From an uncultured Atopobiaceae bacterium (GTDB lineage Bacteria > Actinomycetota > Coriobacteriia > Coriobacteriales > Atopobiaceae), in the NCBI GenBank assembly GCA_934792625.1, contig CAKVON010000002.1:106462-170461 (forward strand): DNA of 64,000 nt. Direction: 5' to 3'. The position numbers and the translations under genes were made by a program. Numbering within the stretch: the stretch's first letter is position 1; each line of letters starts with the position of its first letter. This document shows positions 2,204 through 61,096 of the stretch, in pieces. The notes beneath the pieces were generated by a model that saw only the letters and a program-made list of their open reading frames with translations, had not been told where the DNA came from and did no database searches.

Positions 2204-2268
2204 GAATGCCACCCTTTCCGTCTTGGGTTACAGGAATCGGGACGAACTTTGTTGCACAGTTATACCAG

Positions 2269-35975: not shown

Positions 35976-36052
35976 TGGTGCCCTCAGAGGGATTCGAACC
36001 CGCGACCTTTCGCTCCGGAGGCGAACGCTCTGATCCACTGAGCTATGAGGGC
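35976..36052 (-). tRNA. tRNA-Arg (anticodon CCG)
   Basis: 77 bases including encoded CCA. Acceptor arms GCCCTCA/TGAGGGC pair fully; D-arm GCTC/GAGC; anticodon loop CTCCGGA giving anticodon CCG (reads CGG); T-arm GCGGG-TTCGAAT-CCCTC. Cloverleaf folded by eye. Confidence 0.97.
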
Positions 36053-36062
36053 AAGCGCGTCG

Positions 36063-36068
36063 ATTATA
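36063..36068 (-). promoter_or_regulatory. -10 box of tRNA-Arg
   Basis: Perfect TATAAT on the minus strand, 10 bp upstream of the tRNA 5' end. The -35 region is poor (TGTAAC at 18 bp spacing). Confidence 0.65.
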
Positions 36069-36184
36069 GCCCATGCGTTTCGATTCGTTACACGTATCCG
36101 GAAAACAACCGCGATGTAGTAGGATTATCCGACTTGCATAGGCATATACGTGCAGGACGCGACTCGGGAACGGACACAACTCAC

Positions 36185-37219
36185 ATGATTGTTGCACTCA
36201 ACAACAGCGCCACCGACGGCCAGATCGACCAGTTCGTCGACTGGGTCGAGGCCAAGGGCCTCAAGACCGACGTCTCCAAGGGCCAAGACGTCACCATCGT
36301 CGGCCTCATCGGCGACACCACCAAGATCGACCCTTACCTCATCGAGAGCATGGACATCGTCGATCACGTCCAGCGCGTGACGGAGCCCTTCAAGAGGGCC
36401 AACCGCAAGTTCCACCCCGCCGACACCGTCGTCGACTGCGGCCACGGCGCGCTGATCGGCGGCGGCCACTTCCAGGTCATCGCCGGCCCCTGCTCGGTGG
36501 AGGGCGACAACCTCGCAACCATCGCCCGCGCCGTGCGCGCGTCGGGCGCCACGATGCTTCGCGGCGGAGCCTACAAGCCCCGTACCAGCCCCTACTCGTA
36601 CCAGGGGATGGGCGAGAAGGGCCTCGACCTTCTCTGCGCCGCGCGCGACGAGCTGGACATGCCCATCGTCACCGAGATCATGGACGCACGCGACATCCAG
36701 AAGTTCGTCGACCGCAAGATCGACGTCCTTCAGATCGGCGCCCGCAACTCGCAGAACTTCACCCTGCTGAAGGAGGTCGGCAAGTCCGGCATCCCCGTCC
36801 TTCTTAAGAGGGGCATCTCGGGCACCATCGACGAGCTGCTCATGGCCGCCGAATACGTGATGAGCGAGGGTAACCCCAACGTCATCCTGTGCGAGCGCGG
36901 CATCCGCACCTACGAGACCCGCACGCGCAACACCTTCGACCTGTCCGCCGTGGCCGTGCTGCACCACCTGACGCACCTGCCCGTGGTCGCCGACCCGAGC
37001 CACGCCACCGGATACACCCGCTACGTGGCCCCCATGGCGCTCGCCGCCACGGCCGCCGGCGCCGACGGCCTCGAGGTCGAGGTCCACGACTGCCCGAGCC
37101 GGGCCTGGTCCGACGGCGCCCAGGCGCTCACGCCCGACATGTTCGACGACATGATGGGCAAGGTCCGCGGCATCCGCTCCGTCATCTGCCCCGAGCCCGA
37201 CGCCGAGGGCGGTCGATAG
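36185..37219 (+). CDS. aroF: 3-deoxy-7-phosphoheptulonate synthase
   Basis: First step of the shikimate pathway: PEP + erythrose 4-phosphate to DAHP. 344 residues. An N-terminal ferredoxin-like regulatory domain (about 1-85, [17 protein letters not shown]) precedes the class Ibeta catalytic barrel with [25 protein letters not shown] and [11 protein letters not shown] at 36185; the ribosome binding site is weak. A start at 35978 lies in the tRNA and is rejected. First gene of aroF-tyrA-aroB-aroA-aroC-pheA, one base before tyrA. Confidence 0.95.
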
Positions 37220-37220
37220 C

Positions 37221-38129
37221 ATGGTTGCAGAGAAGGACCTCGAGCCCACTATCACTTACGAGCCGGAGCCCTGCCCCACCTTTGTGCCCGGGCGGGTCGG
37301 CGTCGTCGGCCTGGGCCTCATGGGCGGCTCGTTCGCCAAGGCCATGCACGAGGGCGGGCGTGAGGTCTACGCGTGGAACCGCACGCGCTCCACGCTCGAG
37401 CTCGCCATGATCGAGACCGTCGACGGAGAGCTCGACGACCGCACGATCCCCACCTGCGAGCTCATCATCCTGGCCGGCTACCCCCAGTTCAGCATCGACT
37501 GGCTCGCCGACATGGCCGACAAGATCTCGGGCGGCGCGATCGTCATCGACGCCGTCGGCGTCAAGCGCGTCATCTGCGAGCGCTGCTTCGACATCGCCAA
37601 GGGCCGCGACTGGACCTTCGTCGGCTGCCACCCCATGGCGGGCACCCAGTACTCCGGCTACGGCCGCTCGCGCGCCAACATGTTCCACAGGGCGCCCATG
37701 GTCGTCGTCCCTCCCCAGATGGAGGACATCAAGCGCCTCGACCTTCTCGACAGGCTCAAGGACCTGCTCGAGCCCTGCGGCTTCGGGTCGTTCACGCTTG
37801 CCTCGGCCGACTTCCACGACCGCCAGATCGCATACACCAGCCAGCTCGCGCACGTCGTGTCCAACGCCTACGTCAAGAGCCCGGCCGCGCAGGAGCACAA
37901 GGGCTTCTCGGCGGGCTCGTACAAGGACCTCACGCGCGTGGCGCGCCTGAACGCGCCCATGTGGACTGAGCTGTTCCTCGACAACGCCGACCACCTGTCG
38001 CGCGAGGTCGGGACCCTCATCGACAACCTGCAGGCGTACAAGGACGCGCTCGACGCACGCGACGCCGGCCGCCTCGAAGCCCTTCTTGCGGAGGGCGACA
38101 GGCTCAAGAGGGAGGCCGAGGCCCGATGA
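37221..38129 (+). CDS. tyrA: prephenate dehydrogenase
   Basis: Converts prephenate to 4-hydroxyphenylpyruvate for tyrosine. 302 residues: NAD(P)-binding VGVVGLGLMGGSFAKA near residue 26, catalytic-region GCHPMAGTQYSGYG, then a helical dimerisation domain. No ACT domain. Lies between aroF and aroB, with a four-base overlap (ATGA) with the latter. Confidence 0.93.
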   Translation: MVAEKDLEPTITYEPEPCPTFVPGRVGVVGLGLMGGSFAKAMHEGGREVYAWNRTRSTLELAMIETVDGELDDRTIPTCELIILAGYPQFSIDWLADMADKISGGAIVIDAVGVKRVICERCFDIAKGRDWTFVGCHPMAGTQYSGYGRSRANMFHRAPMVVVPPQMEDIKRLDLLDRLKDLLEPCGFGSFTLASADFHDRQIAYTSQLAHVVSNAYVKSPAAQEHKGFSAGSYKDLTRVARLNAPMWTELFLDNADHLSREVGTLIDNLQAYKDALDARDAGRLEALLAEGDRLKREAEAR

Positions 38130-39223
38130 GCGTCGTCGAGACCGTGCGCGTATCCACCCCCTCCCGCTCCTACGACGTCCTCGTTGGCAGCGGCATCCTC
38201 GGCGAGGTCGGCCGCGTCACGCGCGAGTCCTGCGCGGGAACCCGCTGCTGCGTCGTGAGCGACTCCAACGTCGCCCCGCTCTATGCGGACCGGGCCATGT
38301 GCTCGCTTCGCGACGCGGGGTACGCGGTCACGCTGCGCACCTTCGAGGCTGGCGAGAAGAACAAGCGACTCGCGACCCTCTCGGGCATTCTCGAGGGCCT
38401 CGCCGCCGACGGACTGTCCCGCGACGACTGCGTGGTCGCCCTCGGCGGTGGCGTCACCGGCGACATGGCCGGCCTTGCCGCGGCACTCTACCTGCGCGGC
38501 ATTCGCGTGGTGCAGGTCCCCACGTCGCTTCTTGCCATGGTCGACTCCTCCGTCGGCGGCAAGACCGCCGTCGACCTCGAGGCCGGCAAGAACCTGTGCG
38601 GCGCCTTCTTCCAACCCAACGCCGTCGTCGCCGACGTCGACTGCCTCAACACCATCTCACACGACCTGTTCACCGACAGCTGCGGCGAGCTCATCAAGCA
38701 CGGCGTCATCGCCGACCCCGAGCTGTTCGACCTGCTGGCGAGCGACCCCATCAACCGCGGGGGCTACGACCGCGCGAGTCTCGCGCGCGTCATCGCCCGC
38801 AACGTCCGGATCAAGCGCGACGTGGTCGACGCCGACGAGCGCGAGAGCGGCGTGCGCCAGACGCTCAACTTCGGCCACACCCTCGGCCACGCCGTCGAGG
38901 CCGCAAGCGACTTCTCGCTGGGCCACGGCTCGAGCGTCGCCTGCGGAATGTGCTGCATCGCGAGGGCCTCGCACGCGCTCGGTTGGTGCGATGCCTCCGT
39001 CCCAGCCCGCATCGAGGCCGCGGTCACGGCATACGGCCTGCCCGTCGACACCGACCTCGACCACGACGTCATCTTCGAGTACGCCACGCACGACAAGAAG
39101 CGCCACGGCGAGACCATGAACGTGGTCGTCCCCCGCGCCATCGGCGAGGTCGAGGTCAGAAACGTCGGCTGGGACACCCTCCGAAAGATCATCTCCGCGG
39201 GCTGCGGCACATACGCCCGCTAG
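38126..39223 (+). CDS. aroB: 3-dehydroquinate synthase
   Basis: Cyclises DAHP to 3-dehydroquinate, NAD and metal dependent. 365 residues. Motifs: VALGGGVTGDMAGLAAALYLRG, PTSLLAMVDSSVGGKTAV and the metal-binding NFGHTLGHAVE. Overlaps tyrA by four bases. Confidence 0.96.
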   Translation: MSVVETVRVSTPSRSYDVLVGSGILGEVGRVTRESCAGTRCCVVSDSNVAPLYADRAMCSLRDAGYAVTLRTFEAGEKNKRLATLSGILEGLAADGLSRDDCVVALGGGVTGDMAGLAAALYLRGIRVVQVPTSLLAMVDSSVGGKTAVDLEAGKNLCGAFFQPNAVVADVDCLNTISHDLFTDSCGELIKHGVIADPELFDLLASDPINRGGYDRASLARVIARNVRIKRDVVDADERESGVRQTLNFGHTLGHAVEAASDFSLGHGSSVACGMCCIARASHALGWCDASVPARIEAAVTAYGLPVDTDLDHDVIFEYATHDKKRHGETMNVVVPRAIGEVEVRNVGWDTLRKIISAGCGTYAR

Positions 39224-39250: not shown

Positions 39251-40555
39251 TTGAAGGCAATCGTCACCCCGTCGCCGCTCGGCGGCTCCATCCGTGGCAT
39301 CGCGTCCAAGTCGATCGCGCACCGCCAGCTCATCTGCGCCGCGCTGTCCGACACGCCCTGCGAGGTAGTCTGCGCCACCACCTCGCAGGACATCGAGGCC
39401 ACGGCGGCATGCCTTCGCGCGCTCGGGGCCGGAGTCACCCGCACCGCGCGCGGCTTCCGCGTGCGCCCCGTGCGCCGCGGCCCGCGCGACCCGCGTTGGT
39501 CGGGCGCGCCCGCGCTTCTCGACTGCGGCGAGTCCGGCTCCACGCTGCGCTTCATCCTGCCGGTCGCCTGCGCCCTGGGCGACGAGGTCCGCATCGCCGG
39601 CCACGGAAGGCTTGTCGAGCGACCGCTCTCCCCCCTCTACGAGGAGCTCATTGCCGCAGGCGCCGACATCTCCGAGCAGGGCCACTTCCCCCTGCGGGCA
39701 AGGGGCCCCATCCGCCCGGGCCGTTTCATCCTGCCGGGCGACGTCTCCTCGCAGTACGTGAGCGGCCTGCTCATGGCCGCGCCGCTGCTCGGTGGCCGCA
39801 CCGAGGTCGTCGTGACCGACCCGTTCGAGTCACGCTCCTACGTCAACCTGACCATCGACGCCCTCGCGCAGTTCGGCGTCGACGTCCGGGTCACAAAAAC
39901 TGTCGAGAAGGACGCCGAGGCAACGAGCCTCACCGTCGAGTCCGCGGGCTACTCGTCCCCCGGCGGCGTCGAGGTCGAGGGCGACTGGTCCAACGCGGCC
40001 TTCTGGCTTGCCGCAGGCGCCCTGGGCAACGGCATTAGCGTCACGGGCCTCAACCTCTCCAGCTCGCAGGGCGACCGCGTCATCATGGGCGCGTTGGCAC
40101 GCCTGGGCGCCCGCGTCTCGCGCTCGGGCGACACCGCCACCGTCTCCCCCGACATCCTCAGGGGCTGCGAGATAAACGTGAGCGACTGCCCCGACCTCGT
40201 GCCACCCATCGCCGCCGTCGCCGCCCTCGCCCATGGCACGACCACCATCACCGGGGCCGAGAGGCTTCGCCTGAAGGAGTCCGACCGACTCCAGACGGTC
40301 TCCGCCGCCATCAACGCCATGGGTGGACGCATCCAGGTAACAAACGACGGCCTGGTAATCGATGGTGTCGAGTCACTTTCTGGTGGCACGGTCGACGCCG
40401 CCAACGACCACCGCATCGCGATGATGTCGGCCGTGGCAGCCTCCCGCGCGACCTCCCCGGTCGCGATTCGGGGCGCCGAGTGCGTCCGCAAGTCCTACCC
40501 GGCCTTCTTCGAGGACCTTGCCAGGCTCGGCGGCATGGTCAGGATGGAGGGATAG
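39251..40555 (+). CDS. aroA: 3-phosphoshikimate 1-carboxyvinyltransferase (EPSP synthase)
   Basis: Adds the enolpyruvyl group of PEP to shikimate 3-phosphate. 434 residues. SKSIAHRQLICAALS, LDCGESGSTLRF and VKESDR-type motif (LRLKESDRLQTV) are intact. TTG start at 39251 with GAAAGGG nine bases upstream; no alternative start fits. 27 bp after aroB. Confidence 0.95.
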   Translation: MKAIVTPSPLGGSIRGIASKSIAHRQLICAALSDTPCEVVCATTSQDIEATAACLRALGAGVTRTARGFRVRPVRRGPRDPRWSGAPALLDCGESGSTLRFILPVACALGDEVRIAGHGRLVERPLSPLYEELIAAGADISEQGHFPLRARGPIRPGRFILPGDVSSQYVSGLLMAAPLLGGRTEVVVTDPFESRSYVNLTIDALAQFGVDVRVTKTVEKDAEATSLTVESAGYSSPGGVEVEGDWSNAAFWLAAGALGNGISVTGLNLSSSQGDRVIMGALARLGARVSRSGDTATVSPDILRGCEINVSDCPDLVPPIAAVAALAHGTTTITGAERLRLKESDRLQTVSAAINAMGGRIQVTNDGLVIDGVESLSGGTVDAANDHRIAMMSAVAASRATSPVAIRGAECVRKSYPAFFEDLARLGGMVRMEG

Positions 40556-40557
40556 CG

Positions 40558-41688
40558 TTGGCTTCCACCTTCGGCAAAACCCTTCGCGTGAGCGTCTTCG
40601 GACAGTCGCACTCCCCCGCCATCGGCTGCGTGGTCGAGGGCCTGCCATCGGGCTTTCGCGTCGACACCGACGAGCTCGCTGCCTTCATGGCGAGGCGCGC
40701 CCCCGGACGTGACCCCTGGTCGACGCCTCGCAAGGAGGCCGACGCGCCCAGGATCGTCTCGGGCCTCAACCCAGACGGCCGCACGTGCGGGGCACCACTG
40801 GCCGCAATCATCGAGAACACCAACACGCGCTCACACGACTACGACGAGCTGCGGCGCGTTCCCAGGCCTGGCCACGCCGACTGGCCCGCGCAGGTCAAAT
40901 GGTCTGGCGAGCAGGACGTGGCGGGTGGCGGGCACTTCTCGGGAAGGCTGACCGCACCGGTGTGCGTGGCCGGGGGCATCGCCCTGCAGATGCTCGCGAG
41001 CCGCGGCGTGCGCGTCTCGGCACACCTGCTCGAGGTCGCGGGCGAGCCCGACGAGCCCTTCTGCGCGACCGAGCTCGACCCCACGTCGCGTGCCAGGCTC
41101 CACTCCCAGATGGACGCCCTCGCCGATGGGCGCACCTTCCCCGCGATCGACCCCGATGCCGCCACGGCCATGCGAGCCGAGATCGAGGCCGCCCGCAAGG
41201 TGGGAGACTCCGTCGGCGGCGTGATCGAGTGCGTTTGCTGCGGCCTTCCCGCCGGCATCGGTGGCCCCATGTTCGACGGCATCGAGTCCGTCATCGCGCG
41301 CGCCGTCTTTGGCATCCCCGCGGTCAAGGGCCTCGAGTTCGGCAGCGGCTTCGACGCCGCCATCATGTACGGCTCGGAGAACAACGACCCGTATCGCATG
41401 GTCGACGGCCGTGTGGAGCCCACCAAAAACGACGCTGGCGGCAACCTTGGCGGCATCACCACCGGCGCGCCGCTGCTCTTCCGCATGGCGGTCAAGCCCA
41501 CCTCCTCGATCGCTCGCGAGCAGGACTCCGTCGACCTCGTGGCGAACACCGACGCCCGCCTGGGCGTTCGTGGCCGCCACGACCCCTGCATCGCCCCCAG
41601 GGCGGTGCCCGTGGCAGAGGCCGTCATGGCACTCGCGGTCCTCGACAGCTGGCTTTCCTTCCCGCCCGACACTGGTTGGACCCGCTAG
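40558..41688 (+). CDS. aroC: chorismate synthase
   Basis: Eliminates phosphate from EPSP to give chorismate, needs reduced FMN. 376 residues. GQSHSPAIGCVVEGLPSG at the N-terminus, GGGHFSGRLTAP and the C-terminal RGRHDPCIAPRAVPVAEA are diagnostic. Start is TTG at 40558, two bases after the aroA stop and with GGAGGG seven bases upstream; there is no usable ATG nearby. Confidence 0.95.
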   Translation: MASTFGKTLRVSVFGQSHSPAIGCVVEGLPSGFRVDTDELAAFMARRAPGRDPWSTPRKEADAPRIVSGLNPDGRTCGAPLAAIIENTNTRSHDYDELRRVPRPGHADWPAQVKWSGEQDVAGGGHFSGRLTAPVCVAGGIALQMLASRGVRVSAHLLEVAGEPDEPFCATELDPTSRARLHSQMDALADGRTFPAIDPDAATAMRAEIEAARKVGDSVGGVIECVCCGLPAGIGGPMFDGIESVIARAVFGIPAVKGLEFGSGFDAAIMYGSENNDPYRMVDGRVEPTKNDAGGNLGGITTGAPLLFRMAVKPTSSIAREQDSVDLVANTDARLGVRGRHDPCIAPRAVPVAEAVMALAVLDSWLSFPPDTGWTR

Positions 41689-41715: not shown

Positions 41716-42861
41716 ATGAGCGACATCACCGAGATCCGCGACAGGATCGACCACATCGACAGCCAGATCTGCGACCTGTTCAGGCAGCGCATGGACTGCG
41801 CCCTTGAGGTTGCCGAGTACAAGCGCGAGCACGGCCTGCCCGTGCTCGACAAGACGCGCGAGCGCGCCAAGCTGCGCCGCGTTGCCGACTCGATGCCCGA
41901 GGACCTGCGTGACTACAGCCAGGTGCTCTTCTCGCTGTTGATGGACCTTGCCAAGTCCGGCGAGGCCAGGCGCCTGCAGGCGGACGACGGCCTGGTCGGC
42001 CAGATTCGCTCGGCGCGCAAGGCAACGCCCGACCTCTTCCCACCCTCGGCAAAGGTCGCTTGTCAGGGCGTCGAGGGCGCCTACTCCCAGGCTGCGGCCG
42101 ACAGGCTCTTCCGCCATCCCGACATCTCCTATTACGAGACGTGGGAGGAGGTCTTCGCCTCGGTCGTCGACGGCACGAGCCGCTATGGCGTGTTGCCGGT
42201 CGAGAATTCGACCGCGGGAACCGTCAACAAGGTGTACGACCTGATGATGCAGCACGACTTCCACATCGTGCGCACGCTACGCCTCAAGGTCGACCACAAC
42301 CTGCTGGCCAAGCCCGGCACCCGCATCGACGACGTGCGAGACATCTACAGCCATGCCCAGGCGATCCGCCAGTGCTCCGACTTCCTCGACGGCCTGGGGG
42401 ACGTCAACGTCCACGTCGTCGAGAACACCGCCGTCGCGGCGAAGATGGTCGCCGAGTCTGACCGCACGGACGTCGCGGCGCTCTCCAGCCGCATCTGCGC
42501 CGACCTCTACGGCCTCGACCTGTTGTCCCGAAGCGTCCAGAACAGCTCGAGCAACTACACGCGCTTCGCCTGCATCGCACGCGACCTCGAGATTTACCCC
42601 GGCGCCGACCACACCTCGCTCATGATGGTCATCAACCACGAGCCCGGCTCGCTGTACAAGGTGCTTGCGCGCTTCTACGCCCTGGGAATCAACCTCATCA
42701 AGCTCGAGAGCCGCCCCATCCCCGACGAGGACTTCGAGTTCATGTTCTACTTCGACGTCGACTGCCCCGTCGCCGCGCCCGAGTTCGAGACGCTCCTCTC
42801 GTCGCTCGACGACGTCTGCGAGGAGTACCGCTACCTTGGCTCCTACTCCGAGATCATATAG
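41716..42861 (+). CDS. pheA: bifunctional chorismate mutase/prephenate dehydratase (P-protein)
   Basis: Chorismate to phenylpyruvate via prephenate. 381 residues: AroQ-type chorismate mutase helices (1-90, IRDRIDHIDSQICDLF), prephenate dehydratase (about 105-285, QGVEGAYSQAA, LPVENSTAGTV, SSNYTRF) and an ACT domain (about 298-375) with the Phe-sensing ESRP motif. Feedback control by Phe is expected. Last gene of the uninterrupted aro operon. Confidence 0.95.
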   Translation: MSDITEIRDRIDHIDSQICDLFRQRMDCALEVAEYKREHGLPVLDKTRERAKLRRVADSMPEDLRDYSQVLFSLLMDLAKSGEARRLQADDGLVGQIRSARKATPDLFPPSAKVACQGVEGAYSQAAADRLFRHPDISYYETWEEVFASVVDGTSRYGVLPVENSTAGTVNKVYDLMMQHDFHIVRTLRLKVDHNLLAKPGTRIDDVRDIYSHAQAIRQCSDFLDGLGDVNVHVVENTAVAAKMVAESDRTDVAALSSRICADLYGLDLLSRSVQNSSSNYTRFACIARDLEIYPGADHTSLMMVINHEPGSLYKVLARFYALGINLIKLESRPIPDEDFEFMFYFDVDCPVAAPEFETLLSSLDDVCEEYRYLGSYSEII

Positions 42862-43425: not shown

Positions 43426-44202
43426 CTAGAAACGCAACGACATGCAGCTCAGGCCGCCGTCGACCTTGCGGTACTCGGAGGTGTCGACGACCAGGGTCTT
43501 GTAGCCCAGGTCCTGGACCGCCTTCAGGACGGTCGGGTAGCCCTCGGCCACAATCACCGTGCCGTTAACCCAGATGCAGTTGGCGCCATACGCCTCCTCG
43601 GCAGGAACGACGATCTTGTTGTACTGGGCAAAGTCGGGCTTGTCGACAAACTCGCCAGAGACCAGCATGTTGTTGTCCTCGATGTAGTTGACACCCGTCT
43701 TGAGGTGCAGGACCTCCGACAGCGGGACCTCGGAGCCCTCGAGGCTCCAACCAGCCAGAATCTCGCAGAACTGGCGGATGCCCTCCTCGTTGGTACGAGC
43801 GGAACGGCCGATGTAGAAGTGGTCGCCGACCATCATGACATCGCCGCCCTCGAGCGTGCCGGGAGCCTCGATGTAGGCGATGTGGTCGTCGTCAAAGAAG
43901 CGACGGACGACGGCCTCGATCTCGTTCTTCTCGCCATTGCGGCTTGCCGCGCCGGGGTTGGTGATGATGGCGCCACAGCGGGTGATGACGGCGGGGTCCT
44001 CGACGAAGACGCTGTCGGGGTACTGTTCGAGCGCGGGCAGGACGGTGACGTCGACGCCGCACTTCTCGAGGGCGTGTTCGTAGTCGTAATGCTCCTCGAT
44101 GGCGCGCTCGTAGACGGGACGGCCGAGCTCCGGGGCGCTGGTGATGCCGTCGGAGAGCGACTTTCCGGGACGACGGATGATGACGTGGCTGAACTTTGCC
44201 AT
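43426..44202 (-). CDS. dimethylarginine dimethylaminohydrolase-like protein
   Basis: Guanidino-group modifying superfamily; DDAH hydrolyses methylated arginine to citrulline and a methylamine. 258 residues, DDAH length (arginine deiminases are ~410). Visible: LEGGDVMMVGDHFYIG, the His in HLKTGVNYIEDN, and nucleophile Cys253 in GGLSCMSLRF at the C-terminus. Alternatively a different small amidinohydrolase. Sits alone on the minus strand inside the shikimate cluster. Confidence 0.85.
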   Translation of the reverse strand: MAKFSHVIIRRPGKSLSDGITSAPELGRPVYERAIEEHYDYEHALEKCGVDVTVLPALEQYPDSVFVEDPAVITRCGAIITNPGAASRNGEKNEIEAVVRRFFDDDHIAYIEAPGTLEGGDVMMVGDHFYIGRSARTNEEGIRQFCEILAGWSLEGSEVPLSEVLHLKTGVNYIEDNNMLVSGEFVDKPDFAQYNKIVVPAEEAYGANCIWVNGTVIVAEGYPTVLKAVQDLGYKTLVVDTSEYRKVDGGLSCMSLRF

Positions 44203-44511: not shown

Positions 44512-45807
44512 ATGGTCGCCAACCCATCCGCCGACACCGGCTGCGCCCCCTTCGGCCTTCTTGGTCGAAAGCTTGGGCACAGCTGGTCCCCACAGATCCA
44601 TGCGAGCCTCGGAAGCGTGCCGTACGAGCTTCATGAGCTTGAGCCCGACGAGCTCGAGCCATTCGTGCGCGGACGCGCATGGCGCGGGCTCAATGTGACG
44701 ATCCCCTACAAGACCGACGTCATCGCGCTTGCCGACGAGCTGTCGCCTGCGGCGAGCAGACTCGGCGCCTCCAATACGCTCGTCCGCCGCGAGGACGGCT
44801 CGATCTTCGCCGACAACACCGACCTTGCCGGATTTGCCTGGATGTTGCGTCGCTTCTGCGTGCGCCGACTCGGCCTTGCCGACGAGCGAGAGCTGTTGGA
44901 TGGAAACAAGACCCTGGTATTTGGCTCGGGTGGCGCAAGCAGGGCCGTCCGCGCGGCTCTCGAGGATGCTGGCGCGAGGGCGATCGTGATCTCCCGACAC
45001 GGAAGCGAGACGTACGAGACGCTGGTAGAGCGCCATGCCGATGCCGTGCTCGTCGTTAACACCACACCGCTCGGGATGTACCCCAATGTGGACGCCTCTC
45101 CCGTGGACGAGAAGACCCTTGCCGGACTGAAGTCCCTGCATGGCGTGCTCGACATCGTCTATAACCCCAGGCAGACCAAGATCTGCCAGCTGGCGGAACA
45201 CCTTGGCATCCCCTCGGAAAGCGGGCTTGCCATGCTCGTGGCTCAGGCGAAGTGCTCGAGCGAGCTCTTCCAGTCCCGCAGGCTCGACGACTCGCTCGTC
45301 GATTCGATCGAGTCTGCAATCACCGCACAAACCCTCAACGTCGCGCTTATCGGCATGCCGGGCTCGGGCAAGACGACGGCGGGCCGCAGGCTCGCGCGCC
45401 TGACCGGACGCCCCTTCGTCGACCTCGACGACGCAAGCGCACTCGCATGCGGTATGCCGGTTGCCGACTACATCACACGATACGGGGAACCCGCCTTCCG
45501 GGAGGTCGAGACCCGCGTCCTGTCCGACTACTCGGGTCGCTCCGGCCTTGTCATGGCGTGTGGCGGCGGCGTGGTCACCCGACCCGAGAACCATGACCTG
45601 CTCAGGCGCAACTCCGTCGTGGTCATGCTCGACAGACCGATTGACCAACTCTCCTGCACCGGGCGCCCCGTCTCCCAGAAGAAGGGCGTGGAACGGCTCG
45701 CGGCGGAGCGGATGGACCTCTACAAGGCATGGTCGGACCATATCCTGCGCTGCACGGGCTCGGCGGCGGGCGATGCCGAGGCGCTTCGGGCGCTACTGGG
45801 CATCTAG
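44512..45807 (+). CDS. fused shikimate dehydrogenase/shikimate kinase
   Basis: Two successive shikimate steps in one 431-residue chain. The AroE part (1-265) has LLGRKLGHSWSPQIH, catalytic Lys67 in NVTIPYK, DNTD at 101-104 and the NADP-binding FGSGGASRA. The AroK part (275-431) has P-loop GMPGSGKTT (281-289), DLDD at 304-307, CGGGVV and TGRP. The ATG at 44512 has AGGA five bases before it. Frame is continuous with no stop between domains. It is separated from aroF-pheA by the remnant and the dimethylargininase gene. Confidence 0.93.
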   Translation: MVANPSADTGCAPFGLLGRKLGHSWSPQIHASLGSVPYELHELEPDELEPFVRGRAWRGLNVTIPYKTDVIALADELSPAASRLGASNTLVRREDGSIFADNTDLAGFAWMLRRFCVRRLGLADERELLDGNKTLVFGSGGASRAVRAALEDAGARAIVISRHGSETYETLVERHADAVLVVNTTPLGMYPNVDASPVDEKTLAGLKSLHGVLDIVYNPRQTKICQLAEHLGIPSESGLAMLVAQAKCSSELFQSRRLDDSLVDSIESAITAQTLNVALIGMPGSGKTTAGRRLARLTGRPFVDLDDASALACGMPVADYITRYGEPAFREVETRVLSDYSGRSGLVMACGGGVVTRPENHDLLRRNSVVVMLDRPIDQLSCTGRPVSQKKGVERLAAERMDLYKAWSDHILRCTGSAAGDAEALRALLGI

Positions 45808-45968
45808 GCCGATGACCACGCGAAACGTCACGAAACCGCTCGTACGTCAAATCCGCCGCCCACAGAATGGGAACGTTTTCATAACCCAACTTTCAGGTTC
45901 TACCTAATAATTTTGACATGCACGAACAGACCGACACACATCCCACGAAGACACACCGAGGAGCCCCA

Positions 45969-46946
45969 ATGAGCGAGTCGCAAATCGCACAGGACGTCAT
46001 CGCAGCCATCGGCGGCGCATCGAACGTCATCGCGAGCGCAAAGTGCATGACGAGGCTCCGCCTCACGCTGCACGATGCCAGCCTGGCGGACAGCGATGCC
46101 CTTGCCTCCATCCGTGGCGTGCTGGGCTCCGTCCCACGCGGCACTCGCGGGCTCGAGGTCGTGTTCGGCCCCAGCGTTATCGACGGCATCTACGACTCCT
46201 TCAAGCAAATCGTCGTAAACAGCAAGGACGAGGAAGCCCCGCTCGAACGTCCCGAGGGTTCGATGCGCGTGCTCATCTCCCCCGCAAGAAAGCGCAGCTA
46301 CGCCGCGCAGGCCAACGCCAACACGCGTCGCCTTACCCTCGAGGGCGAGGACGAGGCGGGCATCCAGGCGCTCACCGAGCTCCTGGGCGAGACCACGCCA
46401 ACAGCACCCACCGACGCCCCGACGACAACCACCCTCCAGCACAACGCTGCCGAGAAGGACCGCGAGGCAGACCACCCCGCCAAGACGCATGCCACCGACG
46501 CCGGGCCCAAGCTGCTGGTGGTCAACGGGCCCAACATCAATATGGTCGGCATCCGCGAGCCAGGCATCTACGGCACCAGGACCTACGCCGACATCGTCTC
46601 CACCTGCAAGGAGACTGCCGCCCAAGAAGGCTTCTCCGAGTGCGTCGTCTACCAGTCGAACCACGAGGGCGACCTGGTGGACAAGATCCAGGAGGCGTAC
46701 CAGGCCTTCGACGGCATCGTCATCAACCCCGGCGCCTACACCCACACCTCGATAGCGATTCTCGACGCCCTCAAGGCCGTCGCCATCCCCACCGTCGAGG
46801 TCCACATCTCCGCGGTCGAGGACCGCGAGGACTTCCGTCAGGTGTCCTACGTCAGGCTCGCCTGCTTCGAGACCATCACCGGCGAGGGCATCGACGGCTA
46901 CGCGCACGCCATCCGCGACATGGCTGGGCACCTGCAGCTCCTTTAG
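45969..46946 (+). CDS. PTS EIIB domain fused to type II 3-dehydroquinate dehydratase
   Basis: 325 residues. Residues 1-80 are a glucose-type PTS EIIB domain (IAAIGGASNV, phospho-Cys26 in CMTRLRL, GVLGSVPRG, VVFGPSV). Residues 81-178 are a linker with a possible small domain (98-140) and a Thr/Pro/Ala-rich stretch. Residues 181-320 are a complete AroQ: NGPNINMVGIREPGIYG (Arg196, Tyr201), QSNHEGDLVD, INPGAYTHTS (His259), VEVHISAVEDREDFR. The ATG at 45969 has GAGGAG seven bases upstream and is preferred over an ATG at 45918 with no binding site. No EIIC or EIIA is encoded nearby. Completes the chorismate pathway in this cluster. Confidence 0.92.
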   Translation: MSESQIAQDVIAAIGGASNVIASAKCMTRLRLTLHDASLADSDALASIRGVLGSVPRGTRGLEVVFGPSVIDGIYDSFKQIVVNSKDEEAPLERPEGSMRVLISPARKRSYAAQANANTRRLTLEGEDEAGIQALTELLGETTPTAPTDAPTTTTLQHNAAEKDREADHPAKTHATDAGPKLLVVNGPNINMVGIREPGIYGTRTYADIVSTCKETAAQEGFSECVVYQSNHEGDLVDKIQEAYQAFDGIVINPGAYTHTSIAILDALKAVAIPTVEVHISAVEDREDFRQVSYVRLACFETITGEGIDGYAHAIRDMAGHLQLL

Positions 46947-46964: not shown

Positions 46965-47711
46965 ATGGATGCCCTCGGATCAAGCCAGACGATTTCCGTC
47001 GACGGCCTCACCGTCATTCTGCGCAGAAAGCGGGTCAAGAACGTCAACCTGCGCGTCACCAGGGACTGCCGGGTCTGCGTGAGCGCCCCGCCACATGTCC
47101 CCACCTCACGCATCAAGGACTTCGTCCGCGATCGGCGTCCCTGGATCGAGCGACAGCTCACCCCGCAAACCGTCCTCGACGCCGCCCGCTCCGTCAGGAC
47201 ATATTCGCCTGGCGAGAAGACCTACGTTTGGGGCACCCCATGTGACCTGCGCCTTGTTTGCGACGACTCGTTGCGCAAGGCCCGCGCGTTAGTCAGGACC
47301 GACGACTGCGTCGAGATAGTCGGCCCCAGCCTGACGCTCGGCGGCACGCCCCTCTCCATCGAGGCACGACGCGACGCGCTGCGCGAGATGCGCCTCCGCC
47401 TTATGCGCGATGAGCTCGACGCCATACGCGACGAGGCCCAGGACATCACGGGCCTTGTTGCCACGGAATGGAGGCCCCGCCGGATGACGAGTCGCTGGGG
47501 AAGCTGCTCGGTCGCGCGCAAGCGCATCTGGCTCTCCACCGAGCTTGCGAAATACCCGCGCGAGTGCGCCTCCTACGTTGCCATACATGAGCTGTGCCAC
47601 CTGGTCGAGGCAAACCATGGGAACAGGTTCCATGCGCTTCAGGAACGCTACTGTCCCAATTGGCGCAAGCTCAAGGCGATTCTGGACGAGGGTTCCCGCC
47701 GCGGTATCTGA
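46965..47711 (+). CDS. YgjP-like (DUF45) zinc metallopeptidase
   Basis: 248 residues. The zinc site HELCHLVEANHG (HExxH with a third His) is in the C-terminal third, after RMTSRWGSCSVARKRIWLS, the conserved DUF45 stretch. N-terminal half is a beta-rich domain. Cytoplasmic, no signal peptide. Substrate unknown. Starts 18 bp after the EIIB-AroQ stop, probably in the same transcript. Confidence 0.85.
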   Translation: MDALGSSQTISVDGLTVILRRKRVKNVNLRVTRDCRVCVSAPPHVPTSRIKDFVRDRRPWIERQLTPQTVLDAARSVRTYSPGEKTYVWGTPCDLRLVCDDSLRKARALVRTDDCVEIVGPSLTLGGTPLSIEARRDALREMRLRLMRDELDAIRDEAQDITGLVATEWRPRRMTSRWGSCSVARKRIWLSTELAKYPRECASYVAIHELCHLVEANHGNRFHALQERYCPNWRKLKAILDEGSRRGI

Positions 47712-55274: not shown

Positions 55275-56843
55275 TTAGAGAGCGAGCATGGCGACGGTGA
55301 GGATGATGACGCAGACCACGGACATGACTGCGACAACCTTGAGCGCGAACTTGACCCAGGTGCTGTACTCAACACGGGACAGGGCCAGACCACCCATGAT
55401 GGCGCCGGAGGTCGGGGTGATCAGGTTGACCACGCCAGAGGCGGCGGAGAAGATCATGACCATGACAGCCGGGTTGAAGCCGAGCTTGAGGGCCAGCGGT
55501 CCCATGATCGGCATGGAGACGGTAGCCATGCCAGAGGTGGACGGGATGAGGAAGGACAGGACGAAGTAGAGCAGGAAGCTGCCGATGGCGAAGACCGGGC
55601 CAGAGGTGCCGGCAAGGGCGGCGGCCGCGGAGTTCAGGAAGTAATCGGAGAGACCGGTGGCGCTCATGACGACGGAAACGCCACGGGACAGGGCGATGAT
55701 CATGACAACGGACATCATGTCGCCAGCGCCGAGCATGAACTCGTCGACGATCTCACGCTCGGAGAGGCCACCAACGATGCCGATGACGATGGCGAGCAGC
55801 AGGAACCAGGTGGTGGACTCAGCGAAGTACCACTGGCCGAGCGGGGTGCCGGTCAGGAACTCAGACCACGCGGGAGCAGTCTCCTCGCTGGAGACGAGGG
55901 TGCCGGTGACGGTCTCGGGGTCGAGGGTCAGGTCGCCATCGTCGGAATACTTGCCAATGATGTCGTCAGCAGAGACCTCGGTGGTGACATCCTCGAACTG
56001 CTGGCCAGCGACGAAGGCGTTGACGCCCAGGTCCTCCCAGGGAATGAAGGAGATGACCATGACGATGAAGGCGGCGGCGAAGATGCCAAGGCAGGCCTTC
56101 TGACGGCCGGTGAGCTTCTTCTCCTCGTGGACGGCAGCGGAAGCCTCGCCGTAAGCCTCCTGAGAGTGCTTGATCTCGGCAGCGCTCAGCAGGGTGCGGT
56201 TGGGATCGGCCTTGACGCGCTTGGCGTACTGCAGGACGAAGAAGACCGCGACGAGGTAGGCAGCGACGAGCAGGACGGCACCGAGGCCGATGACGACGCC
56301 CTGGTCAACGGCGATGCCCATGTCGGTCAGAGCCGAGGAGGCGATGCCGGTGGCGAACGGGTTGACCGTGGAGCCGAGGCAGCCGACGCCAGCACCCAGC
56401 AGGACGATCATGGCACCGGTGAGGGTGTCGAAGCCAGCGGCCATCATCGTGGCGGACAGCAGGGCGTAGAAACCAACGGTCTCCTCGCACATGCCGTAGG
56501 TGCTGCCGCAGAAGGCGAACAGAGCCATGAGGATGGGGATGAGGCGAGTCTCCTTGCCGCCCATCTTCTGGACGAGCACGGCGATGCCGTCGGAGAGCGC
56601 GTTCGTCTTGTTCATGATGCCGAGGAAGCCACCAAGAACCATGACGAACAGGCAGACGTCAATAGCGTCCGCGAAGCCCTTTGCGGGGGCCATGAGGAAA
56701 TCGGAGAGCGAAGCACCCGTAACCTCGGTGGTGATACCAGAGACGATGACCGTGATGACACACACGATCGCGAGCAGGATGAAGATGATGGAGAATGAGG
56801 TAAGCATTCCCCTCTTCTTCTTGCCCTGGGCCTGATCAGACAT
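55275..56843 (-). CDS. YfcC/ArcD-type basic amino-acid antiporter
   Basis: Integral membrane protein, 522 residues, about 12 membrane helices. The sequences GSTYGMCEETVGFYAL, GCLGSTVNPFATGIASS and SGMATVSMPIMGPLA are typical of the YfcC/DUF3360-like C4-dicarboxylate/arginine carrier superfamily. Next to arginine deiminase and OTC it most likely exchanges arginine for ornithine (inference from context). An extracytoplasmic loop of about 70 residues lies near 260-330. ATG at 56843 with AAAGGAG upstream. Confidence 0.82.
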   Translation of the reverse strand: MSDQAQGKKKRGMLTSFSIIFILLAIVCVITVIVSGITTEVTGASLSDFLMAPAKGFADAIDVCLFVMVLGGFLGIMNKTNALSDGIAVLVQKMGGKETRLIPILMALFAFCGSTYGMCEETVGFYALLSATMMAAGFDTLTGAMIVLLGAGVGCLGSTVNPFATGIASSALTDMGIAVDQGVVIGLGAVLLVAAYLVAVFFVLQYAKRVKADPNRTLLSAAEIKHSQEAYGEASAAVHEEKKLTGRQKACLGIFAAAFIVMVISFIPWEDLGVNAFVAGQQFEDVTTEVSADDIIGKYSDDGDLTLDPETVTGTLVSSEETAPAWSEFLTGTPLGQWYFAESTTWFLLLAIVIGIVGGLSEREIVDEFMLGAGDMMSVVMIIALSRGVSVVMSATGLSDYFLNSAAAALAGTSGPVFAIGSFLLYFVLSFLIPSTSGMATVSMPIMGPLALKLGFNPAVMVMIFSAASGVVNLITPTSGAIMGGLALSRVEYSTWVKFALKVVAVMSVVCVIILTVAMLAL

Positions 56844-56973
56844 TTGACCGCTCCTTTCAATGCGACGAGCCATTTGTCTTTTACTGGGTCAGTCCGCCGC
56901 AACGGACCACTAGCTCGGCAACTAGCTTACGGTTCCGTGCATCATATTGTTTCCATTACGTGGCGAACGGTAT

Positions 56974-58581: not shown

Positions 58582-59577
58582 TTACTTCAGGGTAGCGTAC
58601 ATGACAGCCTTGATGGTGTGCATGCGGTTCTCGGCCTCGTCGAAGACCTTGGACTGCGGGGACTCGAAGACGGCGTCCTCGACCTCCATCTCGGTGATGC
58701 CGAACTGCTTGGCCTTCTCGGCACCGATGACGGTGTTGGTGTCGTGGAAGGAGGGCAGGCAGTGCAGGAAGATGGCCTCGGGCTTAGCCATGGCCATGAC
58801 CTCGGTGGTGACACGGTACGGGGTGAGAGCCTCGATGCGCTCAGCCCAGACCTCGTCGGGCTCGCCCATGGAGACCCAGACGTCGGTGTAGATGACGTCG
58901 GCGCCGGTGCAGCCGTCCTTGACGTCGGAGGTCAGCTTGATGGTGCAGCCGTTGGCCTCGGCGATCGGGGTGCAGGCGTCGATGACGTCCTGGGCGGGCA
59001 TGCAGTTCTCGGGGCCACAGGCGACGAAGTTCATGCCGAGCTTGGCGCAGACGACCATCAGGGAACGGGCAACGTTGTTCTTGCAGTCGCCCATGAAGAC
59101 CAGGGTGCGGCCCTTGATGTCGTAGTTGAAGTTCTCCTGGACGGTCAGGATGTCAGCGAGCATCTGGGTCGGGTGCCAGAGGTCGGTGAGGCCGTTCCAG
59201 ACGGGAACGCCAGCCTTGGCGGCGAGCTCCTCGACGTCCTCCTGATCGAAGCCACGGAACTCAATGCCGTCATACATGCGGCCGAGAACGCGGGCGGTGT
59301 CCTCGATGGACTCCTTCTTGCCCATCTGCGACGAGCCGGGATCCAGGTAGGTGACGCCCATGCCCAGGTCCATGCCGCCGACCTCGAAGGCGCAGCGGGT
59401 GCGCGTGGAGGTCTTCTGGAAGAGAAGGACGATGTTCTTGCCCTCGAGGTAACGGTGGGGAACGCCGGCGCGCTTCAGATCCTTGAGGTTCTTGGAGAGC
59501 TTGAGCATGTACTCGATCTCCTCGGTGGAGAAGTCAAGGAGCCTGAGGAAGCTACGGCCGCTGAGGTTAACACCCAT
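58582..59577 (-). CDS. ornithine carbamoyltransferase
   Basis: Here probably catabolic: citrulline + Pi to ornithine + carbamoyl phosphate in the arginine deiminase pathway. 331 residues. Carbamoyl-phosphate site STRTR (57-61), DLWHPTQ, ornithine-binding SMGE loop, and HCLPSFHD. AAAGGAA before the ATG. Between arcA and a strong terminator; a carbamate kinase gene is not in the window. Confidence 0.94.
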   Translation of the reverse strand: MGVNLSGRSFLRLLDFSTEEIEYMLKLSKNLKDLKRAGVPHRYLEGKNIVLLFQKTSTRTRCAFEVGGMDLGMGVTYLDPGSSQMGKKESIEDTARVLGRMYDGIEFRGFDQEDVEELAAKAGVPVWNGLTDLWHPTQMLADILTVQENFNYDIKGRTLVFMGDCKNNVARSLMVVCAKLGMNFVACGPENCMPAQDVIDACTPIAEANGCTIKLTSDVKDGCTGADVIYTDVWVSMGEPDEVWAERIEALTPYRVTTEVMAMAKPEAIFLHCLPSFHDTNTVIGAEKAKQFGITEMEVEDAVFESPQSKVFDEAENRMHTIKAVMYATLK

Positions 59578-59714: not shown

Positions 59715-60965
59715 TTAGATGTCCTCGCGGACGAAGGGCATGCTCATGCAGCGGGGGCCGCCACGGCCACGAGAGAGCTCGGCGGAGGGAACGACCAGGA
59801 GATCCAGGCCCTCCTTGTAGAGCACGTCGTTGGTGACATCGTTGCGCTGGTAGACGCAGATCTTGCCGGGGGCAACGGCGAGGGTGTTGGAGCCGTCGTT
59901 CCACTGCTCGCGGGCAGCGGCCACAGGGTCGCCACCGCCGCAGGGGATCAGCTTGACGGCGTCGAGGTCGAGAGCCTTGGCGAGAACGTGCTCGAGGGTG
60001 TCGTTCATCTCCTCGATGTTGATCTGGCCCTGCTCAGCGCCCTTGGTCAGCTTGAAGACCTGCAGGGTGCCCATGATGCCCGGGTGGATGGTGAACTTGT
60101 CAACATCGATCTGGGTGAAGACGGTGTCGAGGTGCATGAAGGCACGGGACGACGGGATGTTGAAGGCGTAAATCGTGTCGATCTCGCACTCGTCACCCTT
60201 CTCCCAGAACATGTTCTGGGCGAGAGCGTCGATGGCGGCAGCCTGGGTGCGCTGCGAGATGCCGATGGCGAGGCTGTGGGCGTTGAGGTTGAGAACGTCG
60301 CCACCCTCGGTGTGGAACGCGCTGTCGCGGCGGTACCACAGCGGAGCGTCATTGTAATCGGGGTGATCGCGGAAGATGTACTTGCCGAAGAGGGTCTCGC
60401 GGTTACGAGTGACGGAGTACATGCGGTTCAGGTTGACGCCGCGGCCAACGATCGCGAACGGGTCGCGGGTGAAGTAGGTGTTGGTCATCGGGTCGATGAG
60501 CAGGTCGGTCTCGCCGTCCTGGTCAGCGCCGACGAGCTCGGCGAGAACGCTCGAGGAGGCGTGCGGGAGCTCCAGCTCGGTCTTGCGGATACCGGCGATG
60601 CACTTGTCGACGAAGGCGCGGGTGTCGGTGATGGAATCCATGAACTCCTTGACGGCAGCACGAGCGGCGGCACCGTGGAGACCGGACTCGTCGAGCCACT
60701 GGTTGGTGAACTCCTCACGGGAGCCAGCGGCCTCGAGGGCCTCGGCGACGAGGTTCTCGAGGTAGACAACCTCGGTGCCGTTCTCACGGAGCAGCTCAGC
60801 GAACTTGTCGTGCTCGGCCTGAGCGACCTCGAGGAAGGGGATGTCGTCGAACAGAAGGCGCTCGAGATCGTCCGGCGTGAGGTTGAGGAGCTCCTCGCCG
60901 GGGCGGTGCAGGCAGACCTTCTTCAGGGCGCCAATCTCGCTGTGGACGTAAAGTCCGTTAGCCAT
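59715..60965 (-). CDS. arcA: arginine deiminase
   Basis: Arginine to citrulline + ammonia; first step of arginine fermentation. 416 residues. Motifs: FTRDPFAIVG, HTEGGDVLNL, the catalytic His in AFMHLDTVF, and nucleophile Cys406 in GGPRCMSMPF. The ATG at 60965 has GAAGGAGGAA just upstream; an open frame to 61052 is rejected. GlyGlyAsp substrate loop intact. Confidence 0.96.
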   Translation of the reverse strand: MANGLYVHSEIGALKKVCLHRPGEELLNLTPDDLERLLFDDIPFLEVAQAEHDKFAELLRENGTEVVYLENLVAEALEAAGSREEFTNQWLDESGLHGAAARAAVKEFMDSITDTRAFVDKCIAGIRKTELELPHASSSVLAELVGADQDGETDLLIDPMTNTYFTRDPFAIVGRGVNLNRMYSVTRNRETLFGKYIFRDHPDYNDAPLWYRRDSAFHTEGGDVLNLNAHSLAIGISQRTQAAAIDALAQNMFWEKGDECEIDTIYAFNIPSSRAFMHLDTVFTQIDVDKFTIHPGIMGTLQVFKLTKGAEQGQINIEEMNDTLEHVLAKALDLDAVKLIPCGGGDPVAAAREQWNDGSNTLAVAPGKICVYQRNDVTNDVLYKEGLDLLVVPSAELSRGRGGPRCMSMPFVREDI

Positions 60966-61096
60966 GGTTCCTCCTTCTAATTCTCCCGCGTCTCGTTTGA
61001 TTGACGCGAGTCGATCTTTGCATGCCTTCGGGCATGCGCGTTGGTGTAACACGAGAGCGCCTCTTGATCTTGTTCGGCGGCACTCGTCCTGACGCG

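What the first reader, a model, noticed from the sequence alone, without database searches (positions are those of the whole stretch)
45969..46946. PTS EIIB domain fused to dehydroquinase: a possible PEP-state sensor on the shikimate pathway
One continuous 325-codon frame joins a glucose-type EIIB domain with intact phospho-cysteine motif (Cys26, CMTRLRL) to a complete type II 3-dehydroquinate dehydratase. No EIIC or EIIA lies nearby, so transport is unlikely. EIIB would be phosphorylated by EIIA only when PEP/pyruvate is high, and PEP is the substrate of AroF and AroA in the same cluster. The parsimonious hypothesis is that phosphorylation of Cys26 tunes AroQ activity or oligomer state. The domain identities are read from sequence; the regulatory idea is inference.
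Basis: partly seen in the sequence, partly recalled or inferred. Interest (0 to 1): 0.88.

Follow-up and report, generated by a model that had tools for sequence, protein, structure and literature searches.

The report
Sugar-sensing domain fused to dehydroquinase
A gut-bacterial gene joins a sugar-uptake phosphorylation domain to an enzyme that makes aromatic amino acids; the domain stays intact even in relatives where the enzyme half has lost its active site, which suggests a control protein linking sugar supply to amino-acid synthesis.

Summary
One 325-codon frame (45969-46946, +) joins a glucose-family PTS EIIB domain (PF00367) to a complete type II dehydroquinase (PF01220). It is the last aro gene of a shikimate operon; none of 48 other window ORFs scanned has a PTS domain.

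The fusion is a large family of Coriobacteriia. I identified it in 90 of 396 sampled class genomes (lower bound); all 90 carry a glucose-type EIIA (173 of 396 overall). In 11 of 69 tested, the fusion is the only PF00367 EIIB, and the best EIIC is lactose/cellobiose or fructose type (none in one), yet EI and EIIA are kept. Cys26 is kept in 141/143 fusions with an intact AroQ active site. E. coli Gln456 is Glu63 in nearly all fusions.

The decisive new fact: 61 fusions lack key dehydroquinase residues (R196, H259, R290) but keep the EIIB phosphosite (60/60 with a residue there), and there EIIB is better conserved than AroQ. All six such genomes tested carry a type I dehydroquinase; two controls do not.

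So EIIB is selected for a function beyond catalysis: most likely a PTS-phosphorylated regulator of the shikimate operon. Phosphotransfer, target and direction of control are untested. My paper searches found no description.

The parts
45969..46946 (+). EIIB::AroQ fusion gene, 325 aa plus stop
45958..45963 (+). GAGGAG, ribosome-binding-like site 5 nt before the ATG at 45969
   Evidence: read from sequence
45969..46217 (+). glucose-family PTS EIIB domain, residues 1-83 (PF00367 core 8-41)
   Evidence: AlphaFold2 pLDDT 94-97 over residues 1-80
46044..46046 (+). Cys26 codon, equivalent of E. coli EIICB-Glc Cys421
   Evidence: aligned; conserved in 117/119, 64/64, 141/143 intact and 60/60 active-site-lost rows with a residue (the rows are part of this set)
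46155..46157 (+). Glu63 codon, Gln456 in E. coli EIICB-Glc; family signature
   Evidence: E in 64/64 fusions, Q in 20/20 transporter EIIBs; 141/143 and 61/61; numbering worked out from the alignment
46257..46283 (+). linker motif, residues 97-105 (window GSMRVLISP; family pattern h-x-V/I-x-I/V)
   Evidence: columns 101 and 103; low model confidence
46347..46391 (+). linker acidic/hydrophobic helix-like motif, residues 127-141 (L135 nearly invariant)
   Evidence: L135 in 140/143 intact and 60/61 active-site-lost fusions; predicted helix 129-139, low confidence
46506..46943 (+). type II 3-dehydroquinate dehydratase domain, residues 180-325, catalytic residues present (R196, Y201, H259, E277, H279, R290)
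35978..37219 (+). DAHP synthase (AroF type, with ferredoxin-like domain), uses PEP
37221..38129 (+). tyrA, prephenate dehydrogenase
38126..39223 (+). aroB, dehydroquinate synthase
39251..40555 (+). aroA, EPSP synthase, uses PEP
40480..41688 (+). aroC, chorismate synthase (longest ORF; domain starts at residue 35)
41716..42861 (+). pheA, chorismate mutase and prephenate dehydratase
44512..45807 (+). AroE::AroK fusion (shikimate dehydrogenase N-domain plus shikimate kinase); start 44512 is my choice

Best explanation
The protein is a PTS-phosphorylated control protein of the shikimate operon. A soluble glucose-family EIIB is tethered by a long flexible linker to an AroQ body, which in most lineages (this window included) is also the pathway's dehydroquinase. 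Inferred chain: PEP to EI to HPr to EIIA(Glc type) to Cys26. In the 11 single-EIIB genomes, where the best EIIC is not of the glucose family, nothing found would pass the phosphate on to sugar, so the phospho-state of Cys26 would follow PEP supply and EIIA phosphorylation. I infer that phosphorylated and free EIIB, displayed many-fold on the AroQ oligomer, bind partners differently (as free E. coli EIIB-Glc binds the repressor Mlc, recalled), possibly with the two conserved linker motifs, so that flux through the aro enzymes is matched to PEP and sugar supply. Shown here: architecture, conservation, operon linkage, EIIA co-occurrence, single-EIIB genomes, and retention of EIIB after loss of the AroQ active site. 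Inferred: phosphotransfer, partner, direction of control.
For: Cys26 kept in 117/119, 64/64 genome-derived and window domains, and 141/143 intact plus 60/60 active-site-lost fusions that have a residue there (overlaps). It is among 17 of 83 EIIB columns at 98% or more, against a mean top-residue share of 62% (204 rows). EIIA_1 in 69/69 fusion genomes and in all 90 identified, against 173/396 sampled. 11/69 genomes have one PF00367 match and it is the fusion; all 11 have EIIA_1 (24 hits), a His-containing H-[VI]-G-type motif was seen in at least one EIIA of each, and each has a 570-600 aa EI-sized PEP-utilizer frame. Their best EIIC is lactose/cellobiose (9) or fructose (1) family in 10/10, and none in G093. 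Same aro-operon position in most loci long enough to show it. All 61 active-site-lost fusions lack R196, H259 and R290, yet their EIIB identity (0.68, 1830 pairs) exceeds AroQ identity (0.52), the reverse of intact ones (0.51, 0.72; 10153 pairs). Six of six tested such genomes have type I AroD and no other PF01220 over cut-off; 0 of 2 controls have AroD. Glucose-family EIIAs of B. subtilis phosphorylate non-cognate glucose-family EIIBs (PMC6148471, abstract and passages seen).
Against: No phosphotransfer, partner or kinetic effect is shown. P0065 and P0077 have R and H in place of Cys26 and are intact in AroQ (classes). The active-site-lost group is not uniformly stripped: H279 and E277 remain in 31/61 each, R286 in 7, Y201 in 1; loss of activity is inferred from sequence. 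Models give no confident domain arrangement (pTM 0.51 both; linker pLDDT mostly under 70). EIIA co-occurrence (log10 P -40) ignores shared ancestry. 58/69 fusion genomes also hold other EIIBs, and EIIA has other roles of its own. Genome completeness is not stated and several are MAGs, so absences are soft. AroD was tested in only eight genomes. The two protein sets were gathered by similarity to one intact and one lost query, which biases identity comparisons. HPr was not searched.
Confidence: 0.5

Rival explanations
1. Cis control only: phosphorylation of Cys26 changes the activity or oligomer state of the attached dehydroquinase. Fusions with a lost active site are late derivatives that found another use.
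For: AroQ catalytic residues are intact in this window and in 60 of 66 fusion rows and 143 of 206 proteins; one polypeptide.
Against: 61 fusions keep the EIIB site without the active site. The tether is long and mostly low-confidence. Dehydroquinase is not the usual control point of the pathway (recalled; DAHP synthase is).
Confidence: 0.22
2. Reverse flow: AroQ, sensing a shikimate-pathway ligand, changes how EIIB takes or returns phosphate, so the fusion adjusts EIIA phosphorylation and hence sugar uptake and EIIA-dependent control.
For: The fusion is the only PF00367 EIIB beside EIIA in 11 genomes. AroQ bodies with a lost active site keep N189 and N253 in 61/61 and the VNGPN and QSNHEGD segments, so a modified ligand pocket is possible.
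Against: No ligand evidence; R196, Y201 and H259 positions vary freely in the lost group.
Confidence: 0.15
3. The fusion supplies a soluble EIIB to a glucose-family EIIC elsewhere, so it is a transport part after all.
For: R29 and R31, invariant here, equal E. coli Arg424 and Arg426, which are needed for transfer to sugar (recalled).
Against: G093 has no PF02378 match; the best EIIC in the other ten single-EIIB genomes is lactose/cellobiose or fructose type (weaker EIIC hits were not typed). Gln456 is replaced by Glu.
Confidence: 0.05
4. Historical accident: an EIIB fragment fused and is carried as a solubility or assembly tag with no phospho-function.
For: Two metagenome proteins have lost Cys26.
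Against: The phosphosite is among the best conserved EIIB columns and outlasts the AroQ active site.
Confidence: 0.04

Closest known systems
Glucose-family PTS EIIB (PF00367), e.g. E. coli EIICB-Glc domain (PDB 1o2f, 3bp3; sequence matches)
   Same: Sequence match, phospho-Cys motif C-x-T-R-L-R, GG..N
   Different: No EIIC; Glu63 in place of Gln456; hydrophobic residue before Cys where the sampled Coriobacteriia transporters have His in 16/20; fused to AroQ
Type II 3-dehydroquinate dehydratase AroQ (PF01220; S. coelicolor 1d0i, C. glutamicum 8idu)
   Different: N-terminal EIIB plus linker; 61 relatives lack key catalytic residues
Triosephosphate isomerase fused to PTS EIIB (NCBIfam NF011497)
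   Same: A glucose-type EIIB fused to a cytosolic metabolic enzyme; the name comes
   Different: Glycolytic enzyme; EIIB at the C-terminal end of that model (positions 276-354 of 357); the window protein scores 22.5 bits against a cut-off of 485
EIIB-Glc / Mlc interaction (PDB 3bp3, 3bp8; mechanism recalled)
   Same: Free EIIB as a switchable protein-binding surface
   Different: There EIIB belongs to a transporter and the partner is a repressor
PTS control domains on other proteins, such as PRD regulators and the IIA domain of LacS (recalled)
   Same: PTS phosphorylation used for control, not transport
   Different: Regulators or transporters, not a biosynthetic enzyme or pseudoenzyme

Membership tests
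Glucose-family PTS EIIB (PF00367) | Match over the Pfam gathering score | tested here: met
   46.5 bits against 27
Glucose-family PTS EIIB (PF00367) | Active-site Cys in C-x-T-R-L-R | tested here: met
   Cys26 in CMTRLR; family 141/143 and 60/60 with a residue
Glucose-family PTS EIIB (PF00367) | Gln at the E. coli 456 position (my own comparison, not a formal criterion of PF00367) | tested here: not met
   Glu63; 20/20 sampled transporter EIIBs have Gln
Glucose-family PTS EIIB (PF00367) | Accepts phosphate from EIIA | not testable with these tools
   needs biochemistry
PTS sugar transporter EII complex | EIIC domain in the protein or a neighbouring gene | tested here: not met
   none in the fusion nor in 48 scanned window ORFs
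Type II dehydroquinase (PF01220) | Match over the Pfam gathering score | tested here: met
   180.1 bits against 23.3
Type II dehydroquinase (PF01220) | Catalytic Arg, Tyr and His residues (S. coelicolor Arg23, Tyr28 equivalents; roles recalled) | tested here: met
   R196, Y201, H259, H279, R290 present in the window protein; R196 and H259 in 0 of 61 lost relatives
Type II dehydroquinase (PF01220) | Dodecameric assembly and activity | not testable with these tools
   needs biochemistry
TIM-EIIB fusion (NF011497) | Score over the model cut-off | tested here: not met
   22.5 bits against 485

The most novel reading that the evidence does not exclude
EIIB::AroQ is a new kind of PTS output: a multi-copy, phosphocysteine-switched hub built on a dehydroquinase body that couples PEP and sugar state to aromatic amino-acid synthesis. 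In some Coriobacteriia type I AroD took over the chemistry and the fusion became a pure signalling pseudoenzyme.
Probability: 0.35. Interest if true: 0.9.

Novelty: new variant of a known kind. Interest (0 to 1): 0.78.

Why it matters
PTS and shikimate pathway both spend PEP (recalled), but no protein that physically joins their control was found in my paper searches. Here nature seems to have run the separation-of-function experiment: enzyme active site lost, PTS phosphosite kept, chemistry available from AroD. That makes a PTS-to-aromatics link directly testable with purified parts, in gut and rumen actinobacteria whose genes are labelled only 'type II 3-dehydroquinate dehydratase', a label that is probably wrong for the forms without an active site.

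Tried and rejected
Foreign AroQ replacement in the divergent fusions (38-49% identity AroQ, EIIB scores of 110-121 bits): not supported; the six form one supported branch (98/99) in an AroQ tree of 143 rows, within the Coriobacteriia part (whose bootstrap had not settled); the likelier cause is loss of active-site constraint. Number of losses: FastTree parsimony gives 4 changes (all columns), 3 (AroQ), 8 (EIIB); long branches leave 'once or several times' open. P0190 (intact) shares a linker pattern with P0210 (lost), and P0026, P0099, P0139 (intact) share DALFPMSRQ with the main lost group.

Linker regular expressions were crude: strand motif in 119/143 intact but only 36/61 lost rows; I rely on column counts instead. 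In one search the aroE_aroK query was translated out of frame with stops written X; I ignore that column. Also, L179 and L083 are rearranged (aroC-aroA-aroB-tyrA, or pheA, reversed downstream), L026 and L038 have extra sequence before the fusion, and loci of about 4 kb are too short to tell. Intermediate proteins P0145 and P0194 were left out of both classes, and 4 of 210 proteins under 255 aa were dropped. The pairwise identities used only the first 6000 of 10153 intact pairs; one search uses all and changes 0.506 to 0.508.

One search lists only about 150 matches, so further fusions, above all active-site-lost ones, may be missed; 90 is a lower bound (69 full-length; 18 more and one cut by a contig end, G347, by my own HMM; G289 and G341 through). 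Genomes without EIIA were not searched for PF00367 one by one. The EIIA status of G398 (L026) was not tested. L120 and L142 EIIAs did not match my His-motif pattern, and the pattern hit a wrong site in L131 and L135. VIA-align rows cover only residues 178-325, so EIIB fold was not tested there. Structure alignments used 72 of the 121 proteins then held and 58 rows, five of them intact fusions.

Paper searches (all ten used): bear on PTS-domain fusions or EIIB with the shikimate pathway; two were about EIIB-Glc residues and Mlc. No title or abstract listed describes EIIB::AroQ; listings (20 of 25; 12 of 19) were partial, and the papers found (two; one, each term once) were not read. PMC11393339 held none of my residue terms. 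PMC2405797 passages describe other PTS fusions, none with AroQ.

Full report

Surroundings. The operon reads aroF, tyrA, aroB, aroA, aroC, pheA, (an inserted arginine-deiminase-like gene on the other strand), aroE::aroK, EIIB::aroQ, then a YgjP-like metallopeptidase. Of 48 other window ORFs scanned, none has a PTS domain, and a six-frame scan with the fusion's own EIIB HMM finds only the fusion. In most fetched loci long enough to show it, the fusion sits at the end of the same operon; L179 and L083 are rearranged. Unfused aroQ takes the same place in Collinsella, and in Slackia lies beside aroB and aroC (the aroE_aroK column of that call is invalid).

How widespread. A search of 5.8 billion proteins gave 1775 hits; of the 120 listed, 118 carry both domains. 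Names given by sources include Atopobium, Olsenella, Tractidigestivibacter, Parafannyhessea, Atopobiaceae, Coriobacteriaceae and Coriobacteriales. In a class sample of 396 genomes I identified 90 with the fusion: 69 full-length in the listing, 18 more plus one cut by a contig end found with an EIIB HMM, and G289 and G341 through. This is a lower bound.

Is the phosphosite under selection? In 119 homologues Cys26 is C in 117, and T28, R29, L30, R31 are invariant. In 64 distinct EIIB domains (63 from fetched loci, plus the window) C is 64/64. The exceptions are P0065 (R) and P0077 (H), two similar sequences. Against 20 transporter EIIBs from the class, position 63 is E in 64/64 fusions and Q in 20/20 transporters, and the residue before Cys is I, L or V in 59/64 fusions but H in 16/20 transporters. 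The 20 were taken mostly from the top PF00367 matches, not at random.

Is the PTS there to feed it? All 69 fusion genomes tested have PTS_EIIA_1, as do the other 21 identified (read from the list), against 173 of 396 sampled. Chance would give log10 P of -40, but this ignores common descent. In 11 of 69 the only PF00367 match at E of 0.001 or better is the fusion. These 11 have 24 EIIA_1 hits and each has an EI-sized PEP-utilizer frame. Their best EIIC matches are lactose/cellobiose family in nine and fructose in one, and G093 has none (weaker EIIC hits were not typed). So in these genomes no PF00367 partner for the glucose-type EIIA was found but EIIB::AroQ. In B. subtilis glucose-family EIIAs phosphorylate non-cognate EIIBs of the family (PMC6148471, abstract and passages). 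HPr was not searched.

The separation-of-function result. Six divergent fusions (L026, L038, L043, L174, L175, L193) lack R196, Y201, H259, H279, R286 and R290 of AroQ, while 60 of 66 fusion rows and 77 of 77 unfused rows keep them (one of the 77 is the truncated fusion L166). R196 and Y201 equal Arg23 and Tyr28 of the S. coelicolor enzyme by the offset; that these are essential is recalled. A second protein search (120 of 168 listed) widened this: of 206 fusions, 143 are intact (at least 4 of R196, Y201, H259, H279, R290), 61 lost (at most 1), 2 intermediate. In the lost group R196, H259 and R290 are kept in 0 of 61 (R290 is a gap in 50), Y201 in 1, R286 in 7, but E277 and H279 in 31 each, so decay is uneven. 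In the same group Cys26 is 60/60 where a residue is present, R29, L30, R31, E63 and P68 are 61/61, and mean pairwise identity is 0.68 in EIIB but 0.52 in AroQ; intact fusions show 0.51 and 0.72. The fold is kept: PF01220 still matches P0131, P0149 and P0210, and the model of P0131 matches type II dehydroquinases (1d0i_E, E 4e-13). N189 and N253 are kept in 61/61 and QSNHEGD nearly so. All six genomes have no other PF01220 match over cut-off but do have a type I dehydroquinase (PF01487, E 8e-60 to 6e-63); the two intact-fusion controls have none. The simplest reading is that AroD took over the chemistry, AroQ lost it, and what selection kept is EIIB on an AroQ body.

How it most likely works. 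Inferred: EIIA hands phosphate to Cys26; the phospho-state, and so PEP and sugar-uptake status, changes which proteins EIIB (and perhaps the two linker motifs around residues 97-105 and 127-141) binds; the AroQ oligomer (type II enzymes are dodecamers, recalled; one title says so) shows many copies. Whether it restrains or promotes aromatic synthesis, and whether control may run back to EIIA, is open. Tuning of the attached enzyme may still happen in intact forms such as this window's, but cannot be the whole function of the family.

Known or new. PTS domains used for control are known (recalled), and NCBIfam holds a TIM-EIIB fusion. EIIB::AroQ sits in public databases, where named, as type II 3-dehydroquinate dehydratase. 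Eight of my ten paper searches bore on it and none lists a description, within an open-licence library only. I call it a new variant of a known kind.

Noticed in passing
P0144, P0149: Fusions without key dehydroquinase catalytic residues are named 'type II 3-dehydroquinate dehydratase' by NCBI; probable misannotation.
   Followed up: yes
window 44512-45807 (+): Shikimate dehydrogenase and shikimate kinase lie in one frame (AroE::AroK), directly before EIIB::AroQ.
   Followed up: partly
window 43426-44202 (-): An ADI/DDAH-like gene on the opposite strand sits between pheA and aroE; a full arginine deiminase (59715-61052, -), a carbamoyltransferase (58582-59577, -) and a DcuC-type carrier (55275-56873, -) lie further on.
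   Followed up: no
window 1340-2212 (-): A kinase/pyrophosphorylase (PF03618) gene; this family includes regulators of PEP-making enzymes (recalled), 44 kb from the fusion.
   Followed up: no
window 46965-47711 (+): YgjP-like metallopeptidase follows the fusion; similar genes lie about 1.4 kb downstream in many fusion loci.
   Followed up: no
L248:3922-5635 (G212): The end of the type I aroD gene overlaps the start of an EamA-family transporter gene.
   Followed up: no
P0065, P0077: Two similar metagenome fusions have R or H in place of Cys26 while AroQ is intact.
   Followed up: no
P0145, P0194: Fusions with partly lost dehydroquinase residues, possible intermediates.
   Followed up: partly
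L242 (G250): In one single-EIIB genome the standalone EIIA lies about 1.3 kb downstream of the EI-sized frame, with one opposite-strand ORF between.
   Followed up: partly
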